DNA of 61,698 bases from contig NZ_RDSD01000024.1 in assembly GCF_003712195.1 (NCBI RefSeq), forward strand, positions 1-61,698, read 5' to 3'. Made by a program: the position numbers and the translations under genes. This document shows positions 10,094-23,512 of this stretch, piece after piece; the stretch's first letter is position 1, and each line of letters opens with the position of its first letter. The notes below the pieces were generated by a model that ran no database searches, was not told where the DNA came from, and saw only the letters and a program-made list of their open reading frames with translations. This stretch comes from Proteiniphilum sp. X52 (GTDB lineage: Bacteria > Bacteroidota > Bacteroidia > Bacteroidales > Dysgonomonadaceae).

Positions 10094-11107
10094 TTATCTA
10101 AACCAATTGACAGGATTGACTTTTCTCAAAAAAATCGCTCTTTTCCTTTTTCTTTTATACCTTTGCCAGTCTTTCCTCTCTTTTTTGTTATAGTATTTTA
10201 CATAAATATCGTCCTGTTGCGAAGGTTCGAAATTTGTAAAACTCCATTTAATTATTTTATCATTTTCAGCCATTTGATACCCAAACGGTGAGATTTCTTC
10301 CAAGGTTTCCAGTTTAATATCATGTAGTTTTAATTCAATATCGGCTTTTTCTATCAAGCCATACCATCCTGAACCAGTCTCCAGAATATACTTAAAATAT
10401 CTATAATCAGCACCATATCCTTGTCCGGATGGCAGTGAATACTCTACTTTTATTTGTTTCCTTTCATTTTTGTAAAAATGAACATTCCATACATACCACG
10501 GAAAATTACCTTTTTCCATTTGTTTTCCAAAGGGTTGCCAAAGGTCTGATCCGAAATGTGGTTTTGTCTCTCTCCATTTAAACAAATCCTCCAAAGCTGC
10601 CCTGGCTGCTTGATATGATGGATTTGAAGAATATTGAAAAAATACATTCTCTTCTATAGTCACATTATTTGCTGAATATATGCTATCCATTTTCCGCTGG
10701 TATTCTTTCTCAATATGGTATATATACATATAAGCATTGTAAATGCTATCTAACTCTGAAGGCACGCCAATATCCTCTTCTGTCAGCATTTTATTGTCAA
10801 CAAAAATCCTGAAATGCGATTTATCATCATCAGAATAGTCACCCATAGACCAGTATTGAAAATTCATTACCGGAAATCCAACCTGAATAGTTATGCTTTC
10901 CCCATGGTTTAATAATTCAAAAGTACATGATACTTTGGCTGAATCATTAAACAAGTCAGCATAAACATATTCTTCTGTCATCTGGATTTTACAACTGTCA
11001 TTTGTATAAATTCCTTTGACAACAATCGGGTTGGGAGCAATGTCAGCGTTAACCCTGGTAAATAATAAAAAAGCAGTCAATATTAAATAAAATAATCTCC
11101 TATTCAT
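10094..11107 (-). CDS. Secreted protein, DUF4424-like
   Basis: About 337 residues from the ATG at 11107 (MNRRLFYL; an ATG 15 bp upstream is also in frame). A signal peptide ends VNADIAPNP. The mature start ADIAPNPIVV, then KIQMTEEYVYADLFND, CTFELLNHGES and IQVGFPVMNF resemble the DUF4424 pattern, in which membrane-associated proteins describe a beta-rich domain after an IAPNP motif. No catalytic signature. The C-terminus is strongly basic (KERKDWQRYKRKRKRA). It is monocistronic. Function unknown. Confidence 0.7.
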   Translation of the reverse strand: MNRRLFYLILTAFLLFTRVNADIAPNPIVVKGIYTNDSCKIQMTEEYVYADLFNDSAKVSCTFELLNHGESITIQVGFPVMNFQYWSMGDYSDDDKSHFRIFVDNKMLTEEDIGVPSELDSIYNAYMYIYHIEKEYQRKMDSIYSANNVTIEENVFFQYSSNPSYQAARAALEDLFKWRETKPHFGSDLWQPFGKQMEKGNFPWYVWNVHFYKNERKQIKVEYSLPSGQGYGADYRYFKYILETGSGWYGLIEKADIELKLHDIKLETLEEISPFGYQMAENDKIIKWSFTNFEPSQQDDIYVKYYNKKERKDWQRYKRKRKRAIFLRKVNPVNWFR

Positions 11108-11138
11108 TATTTGATGATACATTATTTATTATCTTATC

Positions 11139-11166
11139 CTCCTAATGGTTTTAGTTTCATTAGGAG
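11139..11166. terminator. Perfect hairpin upstream of the DUF4424-like gene
   Basis: CTCCTAATG (11139-11147) pairs exactly with CATTAGGAG (11158-11166) around a 10-nt T-rich loop. No clean T-run follows, so it may be a regulatory stem in the 5' leader of the minus-strand gene rather than a terminator. Confidence 0.35.
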
Positions 11167-11469
11167 TAGCAGAGTATCTCATTGTTGGATAACGCGGGGA
11201 TTAGAACAAGGGGCCAAGGGCAATTGAAGATACCAGCAGGAACTCTGAAGACTCCATTCGACCCGCGAACGATGGGCCTACAAACATGTTTCATAAAAAT
11301 GATAATAATTAAAGTAAAGTATGTATTTCTTTCGTTTTGCTAAAGTGTTCCTATTTCGCATCCTCAAGGGAAAGGATCTTCGTCATAAGAATATTTCTCA
11401 TGATACCGGATCATCTGAAAATAATTCATATGAAGCGCCTGCAAATCTAAAATATTTTTTTCAATCTTA
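11167..11469. other. Intergenic region without a recognised gene
   Basis: About 300 bp between a minus-strand gene and the composite element. A GC-richer patch at 11189-11280 differs from the AT-rich remainder and might be a gene or structured-RNA remnant, but both strands are interrupted and I recognise nothing. Confidence 0.4.
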
Positions 11470-11517
11470 ATTATATATCCTCAGAAAAATAATAGAATTA
11501 TAAAAATAATTTATCAG
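11470..11517. repeat. 48-bp target duplication, left copy
   Basis: 48 bp starting ATTATATATCC and ending TTATCAG, identical to 14248-14295. It abuts the left IS end (TAGTTTGAC at 11518). The pair brackets the composite element. Confidence 0.9.
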
Positions 11518-12359
11518 TAGTTTGACTCAATAAATTTTCGATTTTTTTGATAAAAGACCCCCAAAGGTCTTTTTTTGTCAAATATTTTTCTATATTTATA
11601 ACATTGTTGCAGATATGAAACTCAATATTGTCAAGTCCAAGAACTGTACTATTCTCTACGCGGCACGTTCTTACAGGAGCGAAAGCGGCAAAAGCACGTC
11701 CAAAGTGGTCAAGCGTCTAGGGACTGTTGAAGAACTGCGCGGGAAGTTGAATGGGGAAGACCCGATTGAATGGGCAAAGACTCAAGTTGCCGGGATCACC
11801 GCACTTGAAAAAGAAGGGAACAAGCACGTCATTATTGACTGCAACCCCATGGCGCTTATCTCCAAAGGCGAGCGGCGCTCGTACAACGGCGGCCGTTGGA
11901 TCATCGAGAACGGCTTCCGCATCATGAAGACGGACTTCGATGCCCGGCCGTCTCACTTGCTTCCTGGCACTGCTGGTATACAAGTATCTGGAGAAGAAAG
12001 TGAACCGTGGCGGGAAGCACTTCACAACAGATGAGATAGTGGATACACTCAGGGGGATGGACTTCCTAAGCATACCTGGTGAAGGATATATCCCCACTTA
12101 TACCAGGACGGACTTGACCAATCATCTCCATGGCAGTGCCGGCTTCAGGACGGATACCCAGATAGTCACCAAACAGAAGATGAGAAGTATCATCTCACAG
12201 ACAAAGAAAAGAGAAAAAGAGGATTGACAGGGAGGGGGCTCCCCCCCACCTCTATATACCACAAAGTCAGAAAAAAAAGCAAGGCCACAAATCGCCCCTG
12301 AATCGGCCTGTGGCCTTGATCTATCACCACTCTGACAAAACCAAAGCGTCAAACACCGG
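11518..12359 (+). mobile_element. IS1634-like element copy 1, internally deleted
   Basis: Both ends are present: the left end has TAGTTTGAC then the AAAGACC/GGTCTTT hairpin (11555-11580), the right end has the CAAGGCCACA-type hairpin and GTCAAACACCGG at 12348-12359. About 1.15 kb of interior is missing relative to 21271-23284. Confidence 0.9.
11615..12227 (+). pseudogene. IS1634-like transposase, two internal deletions
   Basis: Codons 1-94 correspond to the start of the family protein through RRSYNGG. The frame then jumps directly to RWIIENGFRIMKTDFDARP near the C-terminus. The join sits on CAACGGCGGC, a 10-bp sequence that occurs twice in the intact gene (22893-22902 and 21777-21786); the 1,116 bp lost is an exact multiple of three. 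A second loss of 38 bp after DARP shifts the frame, so the C-terminal part (LALLVYKYLEKK ... TKKREKED, to 12227) is read in another frame. The catalytic D residues are missing; it cannot be active. Confidence 0.9.
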
Positions 12360-12394
12360 AAGGTAAGGATTTTTTGAAAAATGGGAAAATTACG

Positions 12395-13294
12395 CTAATT
12401 CCAAAATTTTTGTGAATGCCAATCGATTGGAAAATCCATCGCTCGAAAATCAACCGTTGGATAACGCTGAGACAACTCTATTAGCCTTTCTTTTAATTTG
12501 TTATTTGGAGTTATCGTATGCAACAGATATTTTATCATACATATTTTATAGTAGATACGCCTTCGGTCAGTAGTCGTGTCATCAATCCATTTATAAGTAG
12601 GATTTCTTAGTTCAGAAGGGATGTTAGGTAGCTCACGGTTCCACATTCTTCCGTGATGGCAACAAATATTTCGAATGTTAGCGAGTACCATCAACCAAGA
12701 AGCCAGCACGGGTGCCTGCAGTCCGAAGGATTTGGCAATCTGCTTTTGCAAACGCCTATCGGCAATATTTATATACAAATTACCAAGAACGCCCAACGGT
12801 ATTATTTCTGCCAACATCCAGGAAGGCGGATACTGATTACTGTAATTCTGTTTGAAATGGAGAATGAAATCTTCTTTGGATTTTGAATGTTCAGCGTCTA
12901 TTAATGATAGACTTTGGATGTATCGATTTCTATCTCTAAAATATATCGGATTTGTCAGCCAAAATATATCGTTTAAGAAGCTACATCCTCTATTAACAAT
13001 TTCTGTGCGTATGGCAATTTCAATTTTCTCAATTTCATTAAAAAGCAACAAACGTAACTTTCTGTCGAAACGATACATATCCAACACCTGATTAAATGTC
13101 GCTCCCGCTTTGTATAAATGTTGATTTTTAGGAGTTTGAAGTAGAGGATAGAAATAAGCACTTAGCCTAAAATATCCGATGTGCTTCAAATAATCCTTCG
13201 CCCGATCATCATTATCAATAAGTAACCCTCGTTCTTTTAAGAGATTTAGTTGCTCGGGAACCGATAGAAATCCTTTGTTGAATGTCTTCTTCAT
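12395..13294 (-). CDS. AbiD/AbiF-type abortive infection protein (Abi_2, HEPN)
   Basis: 299 residues matching the Abi_2 (AbiD/AbiF) layout. The N-terminus has the family's opening SVPEQLNLLKERGLLIDN, then DYLKHIGYFRLSAYFYPLL. The centre has YRFDRKLRLLLFNEIEKIEIAIR. The C-terminal half has the HEPN-type RxxxxH in RNICCHHGRMWNR, the likely RNase site. Members protect against phages by arresting infected cells; lactococcal AbiD/AbiF are the founding examples. The gene is complete, with ATGA overlap to the upstream topB-fragment frame, and is the only intact gene inside the composite element. It has no obvious antitoxin partner, so it probably works alone. Confidence 0.9.
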   Translation of the reverse strand: MKKTFNKGFLSVPEQLNLLKERGLLIDNDDRAKDYLKHIGYFRLSAYFYPLLQTPKNQHLYKAGATFNQVLDMYRFDRKLRLLLFNEIEKIEIAIRTEIVNRGCSFLNDIFWLTNPIYFRDRNRYIQSLSLIDAEHSKSKEDFILHFKQNYSNQYPPSWMLAEIIPLGVLGNLYINIADRRLQKQIAKSFGLQAPVLASWLMVLANIRNICCHHGRMWNRELPNIPSELRNPTYKWIDDTTTDRRRIYYKICMIKYLLHTITPNNKLKERLIELSQRYPTVDFRAMDFPIDWHSQKFWN

Positions 13295-13596
13295 ATGAAT
13301 AGGAAGGTATATAAATAAAACGACCTGCCGATTTGAGCATTGTTAAGAGGCTTGGCAGGTTCTACATAGTGCAAAAGTACAATTTTGTTTTTACCTGACC
13401 AAATTATTGAGTAAATAATACCGATTTTTCTTATTTTTTCATTTTCGTCCGCGGGAGGAAACTCAAACTCTGTGCTTCCATCTTCTTTCAACACGATATA
13501 AGTGTCAAACGTTTTTCCCGTTTTGCTTTTTAGCCCTTTCAATAAAGAAGATTTTTTATTTGTTAGAATAGCTTTTACATCAATTTCCGAAAGCCG
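13291..13596 (-). pseudogene. C-terminal fragment of DNA topoisomerase III, cut by IS copy 2
   Basis: Just inside the IS end the minus strand encodes RLSEIDVKAILTNKK, then LLKGLKSKTGKTFDTYIVLK and STEFEFPP. This is the repeated zinc-free C-terminal segment of TopB-type topoisomerases (LSxKxVxxLLTxxKT..IKGFKSKxGKxFDA). Everything upstream is missing, replaced by the IS. After FEFPP the frame continues 45 codons without resemblance and ends overlapping the Abi ATG. Accessory topB genes are common on Bacteroidota conjugative elements, so the cargo probably came from one. Confidence 0.65.
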
Positions 13597-13597
13597 G

Positions 13598-14247
13598 TAG
13601 TTTGACACAATAAATTTTCGATTTTTTTGATAAAAGACCCCCAGAGGTCTTTTTTTTGTCAAATATTTTTCTATATTTATGGCATTATATAGCATTGTGC
13701 AGATATGAAACTGAATATTGTCAAGTCCAAGAACTGTACTATTCTCTACGCGGCACGTTCTTACAAGAGCGAAAGCGGCAAAAGCACGTCCAAAGTGGTC
13801 AAGCGTCTAGGGACTGTTGAAGAACTGCGCGGGAAGTTGAATGGGGAAGACCCGATTGAATGGGCAAAGACTCAAGTTGCCGGGATGACCGCACTTGAAA
13901 AAGAAGGGAACAAGCACGTCATTATAGACTGCAACCCCATGGCGCTTATCTCCAAAGGCGAGCGGCGCTCGTACAACGGCGGCTACCTGTTCCTTCAGAA
14001 AATATATTACGAACTGGGCCTGGACCACATCTGCAAGAAGATAGCGAAGAAACACAAGCTGCTGAAGTATGACCTGAACGGCATTCTTTCGATGTTGGTA
14101 TACACCCGGATACTGTATCCGGGGTCCAAGCGGTCCTCGTTGGAAGATGCAAGGAAGTTCCTCGAGCAGCCGGAGTGCGCGTTGGAGCAGCGTGTCATCG
14201 TGACCTTCTCGTTCAAGTATCAGGAAAATCAAAGTGTCAAACACGGG
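13598..14247 (+). mobile_element. IS1634-like element copy 2, internally deleted
   Basis: The left end (CCGGTAGTTTGACACAAT at 13594) and the AAAGACC/GGTCTTT hairpin are intact. The right end is shortened to the last ~20 bp (AATCAAAGTGTCAAACAC, 14227-14244), lacking the right-end hairpin. About 1.36 kb is missing relative to the intact IS. Confidence 0.9.
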
Positions 14248-14307
14248 ATTATATATCCTCAGAAAAATAATAGAATTATAAAAATAATTTATCAGTCTGC
14301 CATATAG
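13705..14307 (+). pseudogene. IS1634-like transposase, truncated and run through the IS end
   Basis: Codons 1-154 follow the transposase from its start through CALEQ. The frame then jumps to RVIVTFSFKYQE, skipping 603 bp (exactly 201 codons). The join falls on TGGAGCAG, which occurs at both breakpoints in the intact gene (22686-22693 and 22083-22090). After KYQE the sequence goes straight into the terminal IS end and the flanking repeat, adding about 30 foreign codons. The N-terminal 40 residues match IS copy 1 rather than the intact IS. Catalytic D and E residues are lost. Confidence 0.9.
14248..14295. repeat. 48-bp target duplication, right copy
   Basis: Identical in all 48 positions to 11470-11517. 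It starts right after the right IS end (GTCAAACACGGG). Confidence 0.9.
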
Positions 14308-14521: not shown

Positions 14522-15451
14522 ATGCGAAACAAAACAGTAGCCAGCGGATGTATAATATTTTTCTTTCTTTTGACAACCGGAAACCTTAACGCTATGCAAG
14601 CGGCAAAAAATAATCAGCTTGATCCCCCGCCGCAACAGGAAGAATTGGATAAGGCTTTTCTCCGTATTATTTATGTGTTCGACCAGCAAGCAACAAAAGA
14701 GGATGAGAAAATTTTAATCACTGACACGATGGCATTGGATATTGCACAAAACTGGTCGGTGTACTATGATTGGAACAAAGAGCGGAGAGACTCTGTCGCC
14801 AAAGTAAAAGATCAGAAATTAATACAAACACTTAAATCGGTAAATGTATTGAAAGATCCCGAGAATGAAATTTTCGAGCGTTTTGAAGCCATGCACCGAA
14901 AACCCGAAATTATGAACGACCGGAAAGGTGAAGATGCGCGGATATTTAAGAACCGGTCTGACAACACAACTATTACCATAGACAAAGGTCCACTTACCGG
15001 AGCGGGTAAAGGTATATATCTCCGATTAAAAGAACCAATACCTCCCATGGATTGGCAAATATCGGAAGATACTATTTCCATAATGGGTTACCTTTGTTAC
15101 AAAGCTACAGTCCCATTCCGGGGACGTAATTATACGGCATGGTTTTCACCGGAAATACCGATCAACGAGGGGCCATGGAAGTTATACGGTCTGCCCAGAG
15201 CGATCCTGAGTGCAAAAACGGAGGATGGGTTATTTCGCTTTCAGGCGATTGGAATTGAGCAGATCAAAGACGTACCTATCCGGTTTCCGTCCGACAGAGA
15301 CTTTGAAGAAGCCAAAACTCTGAAACAGGTTAACGATTACAGAAGGTCGAAACTGAAAGACATATCGCTCAGTTATATGGATAATGGCACGATGACTATA
15401 TTGAGGAAAAGAAACCCTGTGAAATACAATGATTTGGAATTGAGTGAATGA
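14522..15451 (+). CDS. GLPGLI family protein
   Basis: 309 residues. A signal peptide ends GNLNAMQA. The signature of this Bacteroidota family, normally GPxKxxGLPGLI, is seen here as GPWKLYGLPRAIL around residue 220. Upstream blocks fit too: YLCYKATVPFRGRNYTAWFSPEIPI, a conserved beta segment. It is a periplasmic or surface protein of unknown activity, nearly always beside an outer-membrane receptor-like gene. Its stop overlaps the next ATG by 4 bp, so the pair is translationally coupled. A weak -7 box (TTACTTTG) lies around 14488-14495. Confidence 0.9.
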   Translation: MRNKTVASGCIIFFFLLTTGNLNAMQAAKNNQLDPPPQQEELDKAFLRIIYVFDQQATKEDEKILITDTMALDIAQNWSVYYDWNKERRDSVAKVKDQKLIQTLKSVNVLKDPENEIFERFEAMHRKPEIMNDRKGEDARIFKNRSDNTTITIDKGPLTGAGKGIYLRLKEPIPPMDWQISEDTISIMGYLCYKATVPFRGRNYTAWFSPEIPINEGPWKLYGLPRAILSAKTEDGLFRFQAIGIEQIKDVPIRFPSDRDFEEAKTLKQVNDYRRSKLKDISLSYMDNGTMTILRKRNPVKYNDLELSE

Positions 15452-19799: not shown

Positions 19800-21194
19800 T
19801 CACCTTTGCGCACTTTTCCCTACCACATACAACTGGAAATTCTCATACCGCTTCACCACCACTTCATCTCCTTTATCAATGAAACCTTTCAGTGAGATGG
19901 CATCGTAAAAGTCACCATCCACATTCACCATGCCCGAAGGACGAAGATCAGTGGCCGCCACACCGCTCTTGCCCACCATGGAAACCGGCTCCATCGATAC
20001 GGACACATATCCTTCCTGATCGGCATGCAATGCCGCGAACCGCAGGAAGCCGGGTTTGCCGATCCGGCCCGACAGGTAAATAATAAGCACCAGCCCCATA
20101 CCCGTACCACCTAAGACAACCATCAGCGCCTTGAACATTTCCATGGCGGGTAATCCTTCAAAGTTAAACCGTATATTGCCTATGAGTGCGAGCACCAATG
20201 CCGAAAAGACAAAGACTATTCCCAGAATACCGGTTATCCCGAAACCGGGGACGACAAATATTTCAAAGACAATAAAGATTAGCCCCAGGACAAACAGCAG
20301 CACTTCCCAGTTCTGGGCATACCCCGTCAGGTAAAGGGGCGTGAAATAGAGGATCGCGGCCGTAACGGCTGCGGCTGTGGGGAAGCCTACGCCGGGCGAC
20401 TGCAATTCAAAATAGATACCTCCTATGATAAACATGATGAGGAATGCCTGCACGATCCCGTTGGTAAGAAAACCTCTGACCTTATCATAAAAAGAGGGAT
20501 TATAGGTCTCTAAAGTGTAGTCGCTGTACCCCAGATGGGTCACGATCACTTCATGCACACTTTCCGCGATACCGTCGCAATAGCCCAACTCGCTAGCCTG
20601 GCTGGCTGTAAGGGTGAGTATCTGTGTGGAGTCGGCAAAACCGGGTATCACAACCTTTTCATCCACCATCGCCTCGGCAATTTTCGGTTCGCGTCTCCAT
20701 TTTTTAATGGTATCCCCATTGTTAACAGTCACTATCTGGCCATGGCTCTCGGCTGTGGCACGCATGATACCGCGCATATAGGACTGATGTTTGTCGGATG
20801 CCCTTTCACCGCTCCCTCCTTCCACCACTGTCGCAGCACCGATAGAGGCACTGTTGCGCATAAAAATACTGTCGCAGGCAATGGAGATCAGCGCGCCGGC
20901 GGAAGCGGCATTATTGTCAATAAAAACATATACGGGAAGGGATGCATTCAGAATGGCCGTGCGCATAGAATCGGCCTCCAGCACGCTCCCTCCATAAGTA
21001 TTCATATGTAAAAGCACTGCGGCCGCATCTTTTCCGGCGGCCTGATGAAGTCCGTTCTGGAGATATATCCATGTATTACTGCCTATATTTTCCTTTATAT
21101 TGATCCGGTATATCATGGGTTTGGCATCCTGCGCCGAAAGATCAAAAGAAAGGATCAGAAGAAACAGGGACAATATGATTTGAAATTCTCTCAT
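19800..21194 (-). CDS. NfeD family membrane-bound serine protease
   Basis: 464 residues. Signal peptide ending LSAQ. A ClpP/crotonase-like protease domain (~25-225) holds the serine in NNAASAGALIS near residue 100 and the lysine in SDKHQSYMRG near 150. Four or five membrane segments follow (GIVQAFLIMFIIGGIYF, AAAVTAAILYF, VLLFVLGLIFIVFEIFVV, ILGIVFVFSALVLALIGNI, MVVLGGTGMGLVLIIYL), then the NfeD OB-fold domain (~390-464, with GKSGVAATDLRPSGMV). These full-length NfeD proteins usually cooperate with a stomatin/SPFH protein, but none is adjacent here. Its first 50 codons and leader are duplicated beyond the IS (23285-23512). Confidence 0.93.
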   Translation of the reverse strand: MREFQIILSLFLLILSFDLSAQDAKPMIYRINIKENIGSNTWIYLQNGLHQAAGKDAAAVLLHMNTYGGSVLEADSMRTAILNASLPVYVFIDNNAASAGALISIACDSIFMRNSASIGAATVVEGGSGERASDKHQSYMRGIMRATAESHGQIVTVNNGDTIKKWRREPKIAEAMVDEKVVIPGFADSTQILTLTASQASELGYCDGIAESVHEVIVTHLGYSDYTLETYNPSFYDKVRGFLTNGIVQAFLIMFIIGGIYFELQSPGVGFPTAAAVTAAILYFTPLYLTGYAQNWEVLLFVLGLIFIVFEIFVVPGFGITGILGIVFVFSALVLALIGNIRFNFEGLPAMEMFKALMVVLGGTGMGLVLIIYLSGRIGKPGFLRFAALHADQEGYVSVSMEPVSMVGKSGVAATDLRPSGMVNVDGDFYDAISLKGFIDKGDEVVVKRYENFQLYVVGKSAQR

Positions 21195-21270
21195 TTTTCA
21201 CAAGGTTTAATACAACAAAGATAATAGATTTTGCGATTCACTATTCATTTTAATTTAAAATGTCTATATT
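21043..21270. repeat. 228-bp IS target duplication, left copy
   Basis: Identical over 228 bp to 23285-23512. It holds nfeD codons 1-50 and the intergenic region up to TGTCTATATT, where the IS begins. Confidence 0.95.
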
Positions 21271-23284
21271 CCGGTGTTTGACACTTTGATTTTGTCAGAC
21301 TGGTGATAGATCAAGGCCACAGGCCGCTGTACGGGCGATTTGTGGCCTTGCTGTTTTTTCTGACTTTGTGGTATATAGAGGTGGGGGGGGGAGCCTCCTC
21401 CCTGTCAATCCTCTTTTTCTCTTTTCTTTGTCTGTGAGATGATACTCCTCATCTTCTGTTTGGTTACTATCTGGGTGTCTGTCCTGAAGCCGGCACTGCC
21501 ATGGAGATGATTGGTCAAGTCCGTCCTGGTGTAAGTGGGGATATATCCTTCACCGGGTATGCTTAGGAAGTCCATCCCCCTGAGCGTATCCAATATCTCA
21601 TCTGTTGTGAAGTGCTTCCCGCCACGGTTCACTTTCTTCTCCAGATACTTGTATACCAGCAGTGCCAGGAAGCAAGTGAGAAAGTGCGCCTTGATCCTGT
21701 CGTCCCTTCTCACGTATACCGGCCGGGCATCGAAGTCGGTTTTCATGATACGGAAGCCGTTCTCGATGATCCAACGGCCGCCGTTGAGTTCGATGATGGC
21801 CGGGGCCGGGTCTTCGAGGTCCGTACACAGGGCATAGAAGCCGTCGAAGCGCGCCTCCTGGTCTATCATCTCCTGATTGAGCGAGAAGTTCTCTATCTGG
21901 GCCAGCTCACCGTCCGCGGTGACATGCTCGGCCTTGATGAAGCGCTTGGCATCGTTGGGGCTCTTCTTCTTTGAGGTGGCACCCCGTCCCTTGGCAAGCA
22001 AAGCTTTGGCGCGGGCTATCTGACGTTCGCGGACATGGCGGAGGTACTCCTGATACTTGAACGAGAAGGTCACGATGACGCGCTGCTCCAACGTCTCTCC
22101 AGTTGACATCAGCGTGGGGTCCCAGCGTTCCTTGAAGAAGAGAGTCTCATGGTACTCCTTTGCGTCCAGGATGCTGATGTCATACTCCTCCTTGCCCCGC
22201 GAACCGGCAATACGCCACCCCTTGCTGTCCAGGGCCCATTCCCGCAGGTGCTTTTTCAACTTCTTCAGTGACTGCACGGTAATGAATGACCTGTCTCCCA
22301 CGCTGTCATTCTTGCGGTTCTCATAGCTTGAAAGGCCTCCATCGGTGCAGACCACCAGCTTGGACAGGCCGAACTTGTCCCTCAGTATCTGCTCCATCGG
22401 CTTGAGCGTGCCGGTCTCCGCCGTGTTCCCCGGCTCGACGCACATCGCCAGCGGGAAGCCGTCGTGGTCCATGAACAGGCCCATCTGCACGATGGGCAGC
22501 GGACGGTTCTCCTTGCTGTGGCCATACTGGCGCAAGCCGCTTTCCTCTTCACACTCGAAGAAGTAGTTCGTCAGGTCATAATACACCACCCGCGTATTGC
22601 GCTTCCCGAGTTTGAGACTGCGTTTGTACACGCCGGCCTGTATCTCGTTGAACTCACCGGCCAGCAGCGACAACGCCCTGTACACCTGCTCCAGCGCGCA
22701 CTCCGGCTGCTCGAGGAACTTCCTTGCATCTTCCAACGAGGACCGCTTGGACCCCGGATACAGTATCCGGGTGTATACCAACATCGAAAGAATGCCGTTC
22801 AGGTCATACTTCAGCAGCTTGTGCTTCCTCGCTATCTTCTTGCAGATGTAGTCCAGGCCCAGTTCGTAATATATTTTCTGAAGGAACAGGTAGCCGCCGT
22901 TGTACGAGCGCCGCTCGCCTTTGGGGATAAGCGCCATGGGGTTGCAGTCAATAATGACGTGCTTGTTCCCTTCTTTTTCAAGTGCGGTCATCCCGGCAAC
23001 TTGAGTCCTTGCCCATTCAATCGGGTCTTCACCATTCAACTTCTCGCGCAGTTCTTCAACAGTCCCGAACTTCTCCACAACTTTGGTTGTGCTTTTTCCG
23101 TCATCTGCGCGATACCCCTTGATGGCATAGAGGTAGGTGAAGCGTCCGCTTTTCTTGGCTACTAGTCTCATGTTTTTAATATCTACCAATATATACCACA
23201 AATATAGAAATAATATTTGACAAAAAAAAGACCTCTGGGGGTCTTTTATCAAAAAAATCGAAAATTTATTGTGTCAAACTACCG
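21271..23284 (-). mobile_element. Intact IS1634-like insertion sequence
   Basis: 2,014 bp. The ends are CCGGTGTTTGACAC (21271) and, reading inward from 23284, CGGTAGTTTGACAC, giving imperfect terminal inverted repeats sharing GTTTGACAC. A single transposase gene fills the interior. Each end carries a hairpin: AAAGACC/GGTCTTT with a T-run at 23229-23245 and CAAGGCCACA/TGTGGCCTTG at 21312-21350 followed by GTTTTTTC. Both are oriented to stop transcription entering the element. Flanked by a 228-bp direct repeat; IS1634-family elements are known for long, variable target duplications. Confidence 0.93.
21405..23171 (-). CDS. IS1634 family (IS4 group) DDE transposase
   Basis: 588 residues from the ATG at 23171 (MRLVAKKSGRF); the frame extends 27 codons further up into the IS terminus, but that part overlaps the entry-side terminator. 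DDE residues fit YYDLTNYFFE (first D), VVCTDGGLS (second D) and GGRWIIENGFRIMKTD (E, with the Rx3Ex6K spacing typical of IS4-group enzymes). A basic linker RGATSKKKSPNDAKR lies between. This is the only complete transposase of its type in the window and could act on the two defective copies at 11518-14247. Its first ~40 residues differ strongly from those copies, the rest hardly at all. Confidence 0.95.
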   Translation of the reverse strand: MRLVAKKSGRFTYLYAIKGYRADDGKSTTKVVEKFGTVEELREKLNGEDPIEWARTQVAGMTALEKEGNKHVIIDCNPMALIPKGERRSYNGGYLFLQKIYYELGLDYICKKIARKHKLLKYDLNGILSMLVYTRILYPGSKRSSLEDARKFLEQPECALEQVYRALSLLAGEFNEIQAGVYKRSLKLGKRNTRVVYYDLTNYFFECEEESGLRQYGHSKENRPLPIVQMGLFMDHDGFPLAMCVEPGNTAETGTLKPMEQILRDKFGLSKLVVCTDGGLSSYENRKNDSVGDRSFITVQSLKKLKKHLREWALDSKGWRIAGSRGKEEYDISILDAKEYHETLFFKERWDPTLMSTGETLEQRVIVTFSFKYQEYLRHVRERQIARAKALLAKGRGATSKKKSPNDAKRFIKAEHVTADGELAQIENFSLNQEMIDQEARFDGFYALCTDLEDPAPAIIELNGGRWIIENGFRIMKTDFDARPVYVRRDDRIKAHFLTCFLALLVYKYLEKKVNRGGKHFTTDEILDTLRGMDFLSIPGEGYIPTYTRTDLTNHLHGSAGFRTDTQIVTKQKMRSIISQTKKREKED

Positions 23285-23436
23285 TGATGAAGTCCGTTCT
23301 GGAGATATATCCATGTATTACTGCCTATATTTTCCTTTATATTGATCCGGTATATCATGGGTTTGGCATCCTGCGCCGAAAGATCAAAAGAAAGGATCAG
23401 AAGAAACAGGGACAATATGATTTGAAATTCTCTCAT
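23285..23436 (-). pseudogene. Duplicated 5' end of nfeD
   Basis: Contains the nfeD ATG (23436) and about 50 codons (signal peptide plus mature start), then runs into the IS end. It was generated by the target duplication. It retains the nfeD leader, so transcripts from it would enter the IS and meet its entry-side terminator. Confidence 0.9.
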
Positions 23437-23512
23437 TTTTCACAAGGTTTAATACAACAAAGATAATAGATTTTGCGATTCACTATTCATTTTAATTTAA
23501 AATGTCTATATT
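23285..23512. repeat. 228-bp IS target duplication, right copy
   Basis: Same sequence as 21043-21270. Here the run continues into TGTACTTC, restoring the -7 box TATATTTG of folK. Confidence 0.95.

What the first reader, a model, noticed from the sequence alone, without database searches (positions are those of the whole stretch)
11470..14295. Composite transposon of two crippled IS1634-like copies carrying an AbiD/AbiF HEPN defence gene
Seen: identical 48-bp direct repeats (11470-11517, 14248-14295) bracket two same-orientation, internally deleted IS copies with an intact Abi_2 gene (RNICCH, the RxxxxH HEPN motif) between them. The repeats flank the whole unit, not each IS. The outer ends match the intact IS at 21271-23284. 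Known: IS1634-family elements leave long, variable target duplications. Inference: the unit inserted as one piece and can be moved in trans by the intact copy 7 kb away, making a non-autonomous defence-gene carrier.
Basis: partly seen in the sequence, partly recalled or inferred. Interest (0 to 1): 0.85.

Follow-up and report, generated by a model that had tools for sequence, protein, structure and literature searches.

The report
Relic composite transposon carrying toxin-RNA module
Two damaged copies of a jumping gene frame a bacterial toxin gene with its probable RNA antidote and seem to have arrived in this genome as one block, leaving an unusually long 48-letter footprint; the parts are known kinds, but the long footprints are worth following.

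Summary
Exact 48-bp repeats (11470-11517, 14248-14295) occur only there in the genome. Two congeneric species have the empty site with one copy. Inside are two same-orientation, internally deleted IS1634-family copies around a 1.2-kb cargo: a complete AbiF gene, its Rfam abiF RNA (RF03085) and the tail of a topB gene cut by the second IS, so the cargo came from elsewhere.

Best reading: a composite transposon that inserted as one unit and is now probably stuck. It encodes no whole transposase, and its outer left end lacks 2-4 terminal bases. Recombination of cargo into a resident IS is not excluded. Mobilisation by the nearby intact IS is unproven; that IS differs from both copies in one 5' block. 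No second unit was seen in 101 family or 393 order genomes, own included, with few candidates scored per genome.

Beyond the brief: 21 of 51 IS1634-family loci have exact flanking repeats of 33 to at least 602 bp, against 0 of 2550 mismatched flank pairs. All 21 fall in one 29-row clade that includes this IS. Long variable target duplication looks like a clade trait. IS1634-family composites and AbiF-RNA modules are already published.

The parts
11470..11517 (+). left copy of the 48-bp target-site duplication
   Evidence: exact repeat; only two copies in the genome; one copy at the empty site in G001 and G004
11518..12359 (+). IS copy c1, IS1634 family, internally deleted; both ends differ from the canonical ends and the left end lacks the terminal CG(GT)
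   Evidence: NF033559 fragments below cut-off
12360..13594 (.). cargo segment between the two IS copies
   Evidence: its two ends share no repeat
12395..13294 (-). abiF gene (Abi_2/AbiD-F family, RxxxxH motif), intact, 299 aa
   Evidence: Pfam Abi_2 2.1e-53, PADLOC AbiD 4.2e-69, PDB 8vz6 'Abi family protein' 4.4e-94, conservation
13323..13359 (-). abiF RNA (Rfam RF03085), probable RNA antitoxin/regulator
   Evidence: 60.9 bits, E 3.6e-10, gathering score 37
13372..13403 (-). promoter-like site TTTG-N20-TACTTTTG just upstream of the abiF RNA (Bacteroidota-type consensus, recalled)
   Evidence: a TAnnTTTG upstream of abiF in 77 of 80 relatives, counted without a control
13444..13594 (-). C-terminal remnant of a topoisomerase III (topB) gene, cut off by IS copy c2
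   Evidence: PF13342 2.4e-13; 90% nt match to topB of G003, 82-83% in G086 and G081
13595..14247 (+). IS copy c2, IS1634 family, internally deleted; left end canonical (CGGTAGTTTGACAC), right end as in the G088 IS
   Evidence: first 586 bp: 19 mismatches to the G088 IS, 39 to the intact window IS
14248..14295 (+). right copy of the 48-bp target-site duplication
21271..23284 (-). intact IS1634-family element; the only full-length match in the genome
   Evidence: NF033559 8.4e-107
21043..21270 (.). one copy of the 228-bp direct repeat flanking the intact IS
   Evidence: exact repeat with 23285-23512
23285..23512 (.). other copy of the 228-bp direct repeat flanking the intact IS

Best explanation
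This is a relic composite transposon. Two copies of one long-duplication IS1634-family element inserted in the same orientation on either side of an abiF toxin / abiF-RNA module; one of them landed in a topB gene, probably of a conjugative element (inferred from the topB remnant). The transposase then used the left end of the first copy and the right end of the second as one unit (inferred) and put it into an intergenic site here with a 48-bp target duplication (the insertion and its duplication are shown by empty sites). Both copies carry internal deletions, at least two of them across 8-10-bp repeats, so the unit encodes no whole transposase. The outer left end lacks its last 2-4 bases, so it is probably immobile even in trans (inferred). 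The cargo keeps its RNA, a promoter-like site and an intact protein. It most likely works as an RNA-neutralised HEPN ribonuclease toxin giving abortive infection or addiction (inferred from published homologues).
For: Exact outer repeats, found nowhere else in the genome. Empty site with one copy in G001 and G004, 2 of the 38 other genus genomes searched; the other 8 genomes with any match have short partial ones (one search aligned G004 only, its G001 alignment being on the wrong strand). No repeat around either IS alone. Same IS lineage has long repeats: 228 bp in the window, 99 bp in G088. topB remnant abutting c2. c1 and c2 share their 5' part with 7 mismatches in 367 and a 12-nt gap. Cargo ends share no repeat, against a circle carrying a single IS with its own duplication. 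abiF RNA and gene intact.
Against: No second insertion of the unit: 0 others in 101 family genomes and 393 order genomes (own genome included in both), but only the best 4 and 2 candidate stretches per genome were scored. One-piece movement rests on one event. Outer repeats do not exclude a resident IS that later gained the cargo by recombination. c1 is a mosaic: its 5' block is G088-like, its 3' part closer to the intact IS, which could itself reflect recombination between IS lineages. The degenerate outer left end is odd for an end that was recently used. Whether the deletions preceded insertion is unknown. Toxicity and phage protection were not tested.
Confidence: 0.7

Rival explanations
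1. Homologous recombination instead of composite transposition: a single IS first inserted here with the 48-bp duplication, and later a circular molecule carrying abiF and an IS copy recombined into it, giving IS-cargo-IS inside the original repeats.
For: It gives the same anatomy; c1 and c2 share a near-identical 5' part of 367 bp. c1 is a mosaic of two IS lineages. The outer left end is degenerate while the inner left end is canonical.
Against: A circle with one IS and its own target duplication would leave a repeat at the two cargo ends; none was found. Otherwise the circle would come from a donor already carrying IS-cargo-IS, so this route needs more steps. c1 differs from canonical at both its ends and c2 has canonical or G088-like ends, rather than an inner/outer split.
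Confidence: 0.22
2. Stepwise build-up at the site: insertion of one IS, insertion of a second element with cargo next to it, then deletions that removed the inner duplications, so the outer 48-bp repeat marks only the oldest insertion.
For: Both copies have lost internal sequence, so deletions happen here.
Against: Both inner IS ends are complete and lie directly on cargo; the topB match runs right up to the c2 end. Several extra events are needed.
Confidence: 0.05
3. The 48-bp repeat is a dispersed repeat or chance and has nothing to do with insertion.
For: None found; the sequence is AT-rich.
Against: Two copies only in 4.43 Mb; one copy at the empty site in two species; shuffle expectation 0.
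Confidence: 0.01

Closest known systems
Tn6097 of Paracoccus ferrooxidans (two ISPfe2 copies, IS1634 family; PMC3281130, passages and section 18 read)
   Same: composite transposon bounded by two IS1634-family copies, flanked as a whole by a target duplication; carries a truncated gene next to one IS
   Different: Tn6097 has two identical, convergent copies, is 17.8 kb with a 6-bp duplication, and was caught moving; here both copies are broken, in the same orientation, with a 48-bp duplication and a toxin-RNA cargo
IS1634 (Mycoplasma mycoides) and IS1549 (Mycobacterium smegmatis), as reported in PMC2266710 (passages and section 14 read)
   Same: long, variable direct repeats (8-514 bp in that review)
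   Different: described there as properties of the IS; here the same kind of footprint surrounds a composite unit
AbiF-RCd22 of Clostridioides difficile, and the Prevotellaceae AbiF-RNA complex cited there (PMC12373285, passages read, among them parts of the abstract)
   Same: Abi_2/AbiD-F HEPN protein preceded by an abiF RNA motif (RF03085); RNA neutralises the toxin
   Different: C. difficile copy is in a prophage and has two RNA motifs; here one motif, between two IS1634-family copies
IS1634-family element of G088 (same family, other genus)
   Same: c2 96% identical over its first 600 bp, same right end, 99-bp direct repeat
   Different: transposase frame open, solo; c1's 3' part is less like it than like the intact window IS

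Membership tests
Composite transposon | two copies of one IS flanking unrelated cargo | tested here: met
   c1 and c2 share their 5' part with 7 mismatches in 367; cargo contains abiF and a topB remnant
Composite transposon | target duplication around the whole unit and not around each IS | tested here: met
Composite transposon | same unit found at more than one site | tested here: not met
   no second unit in 101 family genomes or 393 order genomes, 4 and 2 candidates scored per genome. Hence described as a relic, by anatomy.
Composite transposon | unit seen to move | not testable with these tools
   needs a transposition assay
Composite transposon | intact outer terminal repeats (needed for present mobility) | tested here: not met
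   outer right end canonical; outer left end lacks CG(GT) and has one change
IS1634 family | transposase matches NF033559 above its cut-off | tested here: met
   intact IS 358 bits vs cut-off 100; fragments in c1 and c2 match below cut-off
IS1634 family, long-duplication group | long variable direct repeats | tested here: met
   48, 99 and 228 bp in this lineage; 21 of 51 family loci with 33 bp or more, all in one clade
AbiF / Abi_2 (AbiD-F) toxin | Abi_2 domain with RxxxxH | tested here: met
AbiF type III-like toxin-antitoxin module | abiF RNA upstream on the same strand | tested here: met
   RF03085 at 13323-13359; also in 12 of 12 relatives scanned out of 80 fetched
AbiF type III-like toxin-antitoxin module | toxicity, neutralised by the RNA; phage protection | not testable with these tools
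   inferred from PMC12373285

The most novel reading that the evidence does not exclude
A deep clade of IS1634-family transposases, found in Bacteroidota and on a Bacillota plasmid, makes target duplications of about 30 to over 600 bp as an inherited property of the enzyme. Insertion into a gene can then leave a whole copy of the gene behind. The same machinery can move composite cargo, here a self-sufficient toxin-RNA module, with the same long footprint.
Probability: 0.4. Interest if true: 0.6.

Novelty: new member of a known kind. Interest (0 to 1): 0.42.

Why it matters
Empty sites show a long-duplication IS1634-type insertion whose footprint encloses a whole cargo unit, and the cargo is an AbiF toxin-RNA module, the kind proposed as ancestor of Cas13 (PMC12373285, passages). 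The wider survey gives a handle on an old puzzle: a 2008 review (PMC2266710) says no mechanism had been proposed for the variable long duplications of IS1634 and IS1549. Two copies with identical transposases in one genome (G590) have 326-bp and 131-bp repeats, so length is not fixed by the enzyme's sequence, while the trait clusters in a clade, so the capacity probably is.

Tried and rejected
Dispersed repeat or chance: rejected. Intact window IS as a straightforward parent: not supported, because of the 5' block, but c1's 3' part is closer to it than to G088, so the ancestry is mosaic and unresolved. Single-IS circle as the cargo's form: no repeat at the cargo ends, tested with offsets 0-5, lengths 4-399 and 90% identity. 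Same unit in plasmid and phage records: plasmids gave one 69% match over 12% of the query, in the abi part, phages none. topB-abiF junction elsewhere: no match spanning both in 393 order genomes, 2 candidates scored per genome; topB C-terminus in 0 of the 80 abi loci, many of them cut by contig ends. Relatives of the transposase in viral contigs: none; of AbiF: one, 47% identical. A close transposase match in 393 order genomes: own genome only at E 1e-60. Empty site for the intact IS: could not be tested, because homology to G001 and G004 ends at window 19740 in the stretches fetched. Short duplications could not be read reliably, so 'none' in the survey means no exact repeat of 14 bp or more. 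One search failed (script error) and was rerun.

Survey limits: one search listed 85 places in 49 of 395 phylum genomes (at most 3 candidates scored per genome, E 1e-60 or better). I used 70 of the 85 (30 given as loci, 40 fetched; most of the 15 left out lie near contig ends or are weaker matches) plus 18 other loci. Of these 88, 79 had a transposase ORF hit and 51 had an ORF of 450 codons or more with 700 bp on both sides. Dropped although they show repeats: L204 (89 bp), L224 (49 bp), L183 (623 bp); L184 (109 bp). The 51 include the window IS and the G088 IS, which were known to be long beforehand. Two of the 51 have 14-15-bp repeats and 28 none. By score, 21 of 37 loci with 70 bits or more to the window transposase have long repeats and 0 of 14 below. 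Inside the clade 8 of 29 rows show no long repeat, and near-identical pairs can differ (L216 408 bp, L217 none). The tree has long branches and a midpoint root.

Papers: nine searches. IS1634 + target site duplication + Bacteroid: 0 papers. (Abi with composite transposon) gave listings only, of which no paper was opened. All this covers only the open-licence PMC library.

Full report
Observation. The 48-bp repeats are exact and unique to this place. Between them lie, left to right on the + strand: IS copy c1, a 1235-bp cargo, and IS copy c2. Both IS copies point the same way. c1 keeps IS positions 3-392 and 1499-2014 less 39 nt; c2 keeps 1-603, 1192-1237 and the last 23 nt. The first deletion in c1 lies across the 10-bp repeat CAACGGCGGC and the first in c2 across TGGAGCAG, so slippage or short-homology deletion is likely. 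Neither copy encodes a whole transposase. Neither copy alone has a direct repeat of 4 bp or more at its ends (within 5 bases); the unit has 49.

Insertion. A query of the joined flanks with one 48-bp copy was searched in 39 genus genomes, own included. 11 of 39 had any match at E 0.001. Besides the own genome, two (G001, G004) match straight across the junction; the other 8 are short partial matches. The alignment shows one, slightly diverged copy of the 48-bp sequence, and the neighbouring homologous stretches are 92-94% identical. The unit is thus an insertion relative to two related species and the repeat is a target duplication. The site lies between the ORFs 10094-11122 and 14522-15451.

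Cargo. The gene at 12395-13294 is AbiF-like: Pfam Abi_2 2.1e-53, PADLOC AbiD 4.2e-69, and a PDB chain called 'Abi family protein' at 4.4e-94 (8vz6). In an alignment with 80 relatives, 74 columns are conserved at 95% or more and the window protein differs at 3; R208 and H213 of RxxxxH are kept. It is the only Abi_2 gene found in the genome. Upstream, on the same strand, lies the Rfam abiF RNA (60.9 bits, gathering 37), preceded by TTTG-N20-TACTTTTG. The RNA family was found in 12 of 12 relatives scanned, chosen from 80. A simple alignment score to its core beat every shuffled control in 78 of 80. In C. difficile such an RNA binds and neutralises AbiF (PMC12373285, passages read). I infer the same here.

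Origin. At 13444-13594 lies the C-terminal end of a topB gene, running up to the c2 end. In G003 the matching topB sits among genes that I read as conjugative-element genes from their ORFs. The cargo therefore probably came from another element. The nearest abiF among the 80 loci kept of 237 relatives (82% aa, Bacteroidales UBA1392, L048) has the RNA but neither this IS nor topB. Of the 80, two (L112, L060) have a distant transposase of this kind nearby at 26-31% identity; none has this IS. Many loci are cut short by contig ends.

IS lineage. In its first 586 bp c2 has 19 mismatches to the IS of G088 and 39 (of 567) to the intact window IS; the excess lies in one block at about IS 75-225. c1's 5' part behaves likewise (17 against 42). 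c1's 3' part goes the other way: 20 of 466 to the intact IS, 36 of 466 to G088, again mostly one block. So neither known IS is a simple parent and the lineages are mosaic. The intact IS is the only full-length match in the genome, although repeats may be collapsed in a 96-contig assembly. c2 has a canonical left end and the G088-type right end; c1 differs from canonical at both ends and, as the unit's outer left end, lacks CG or CGGT. Trans-mobilisation of the whole unit is therefore doubtful; c2 alone is the better candidate.

Long duplications. Window IS: 228 bp. G088: 99 bp. I then surveyed IS1634-family loci from family and phylum searches and from plasmids. Of 51 loci passing the filters, 21 have exact flanking repeats of 33 to at least 602 bp, while 0 of 2550 left/right pairs from different loci reach 20 bp. 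A tree of the 51 transposases (49 distinct) puts all 21 in one 29-row clade (support 95/99) and 0 of 22 outside it; within the clade 8 rows show none, so the label needs 8 changes (at least 7), against 16.1 on average in shuffles, 0 of 500 as low. The 8 could be old insertions with decayed repeats, rearranged copies or true short duplicators. The literature I saw gives 5-6 bp for the IS1634 family with two long exceptions (PMC2266710), and 6 bp for Tn6097/ISPfe2 (PMC3281130) and ISGka5 (PMC8024623, passages read).

Weighing. One-piece transposition explains the anatomy with the fewest steps (0.70). Recombination of a donor circle into a resident IS gives the same picture and cannot be excluded (0.22). 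The lack of a second unit in 101 family and 393 order genomes (4 and 2 candidates scored per genome) means mobility as a unit rests on one event. I rate the finding a new member of a known kind (IS1634-family composite transposon, probably dead), with the duplication clade as the more interesting lead.

Noticed in passing
window 19800-23512: The intact IS lies inside the 5' part of the gene 19800-21194, but the 228-bp duplication repeats its upstream 76 bp and first 152 bp, so an intact copy of the gene remains. Long duplications can make insertions harmless.
   Followed up: partly
L199, L225, L226 (G590): Three IS1634-family copies with identical transposases in one genome: flanking repeats of 326 bp, 131 bp and none.
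   Followed up: partly
L178 1432-4137 (Carnobacterium maltaromaticum plasmid): The closest plasmid relative of the transposase (51.5% aa) shows two overlapping pairs of long direct repeats, 175 and 144 bp, hinting at more than one event.
   Followed up: no
L183 588-3650 (Aliarcobacter plasmid) and L184 1222-3304 (Mycoplasmopsis gallopavonis): Long direct repeats of over 600 bp and of 109 bp around IS1634-family transposases in two further phyla; both fell outside the survey filters.
   Followed up: partly
L112 5001-7358 and L060 2-1621: abiF genes with a distant IS1634-like transposase or fragment about 0.4 kb away, possible further associations of the two.
   Followed up: no
window 11195-11290: Just left of the unit, G001 and G004 carry several hundred extra bases relative to the window, so this intergenic region has other insertions or deletions.
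   Followed up: no
window 10918-11517 and 12360-12959: A shared 12-mer, GTTGGATAACGC, occurs once left of the unit and once in the cargo, away from the IS ends; probably chance.
   Followed up: no
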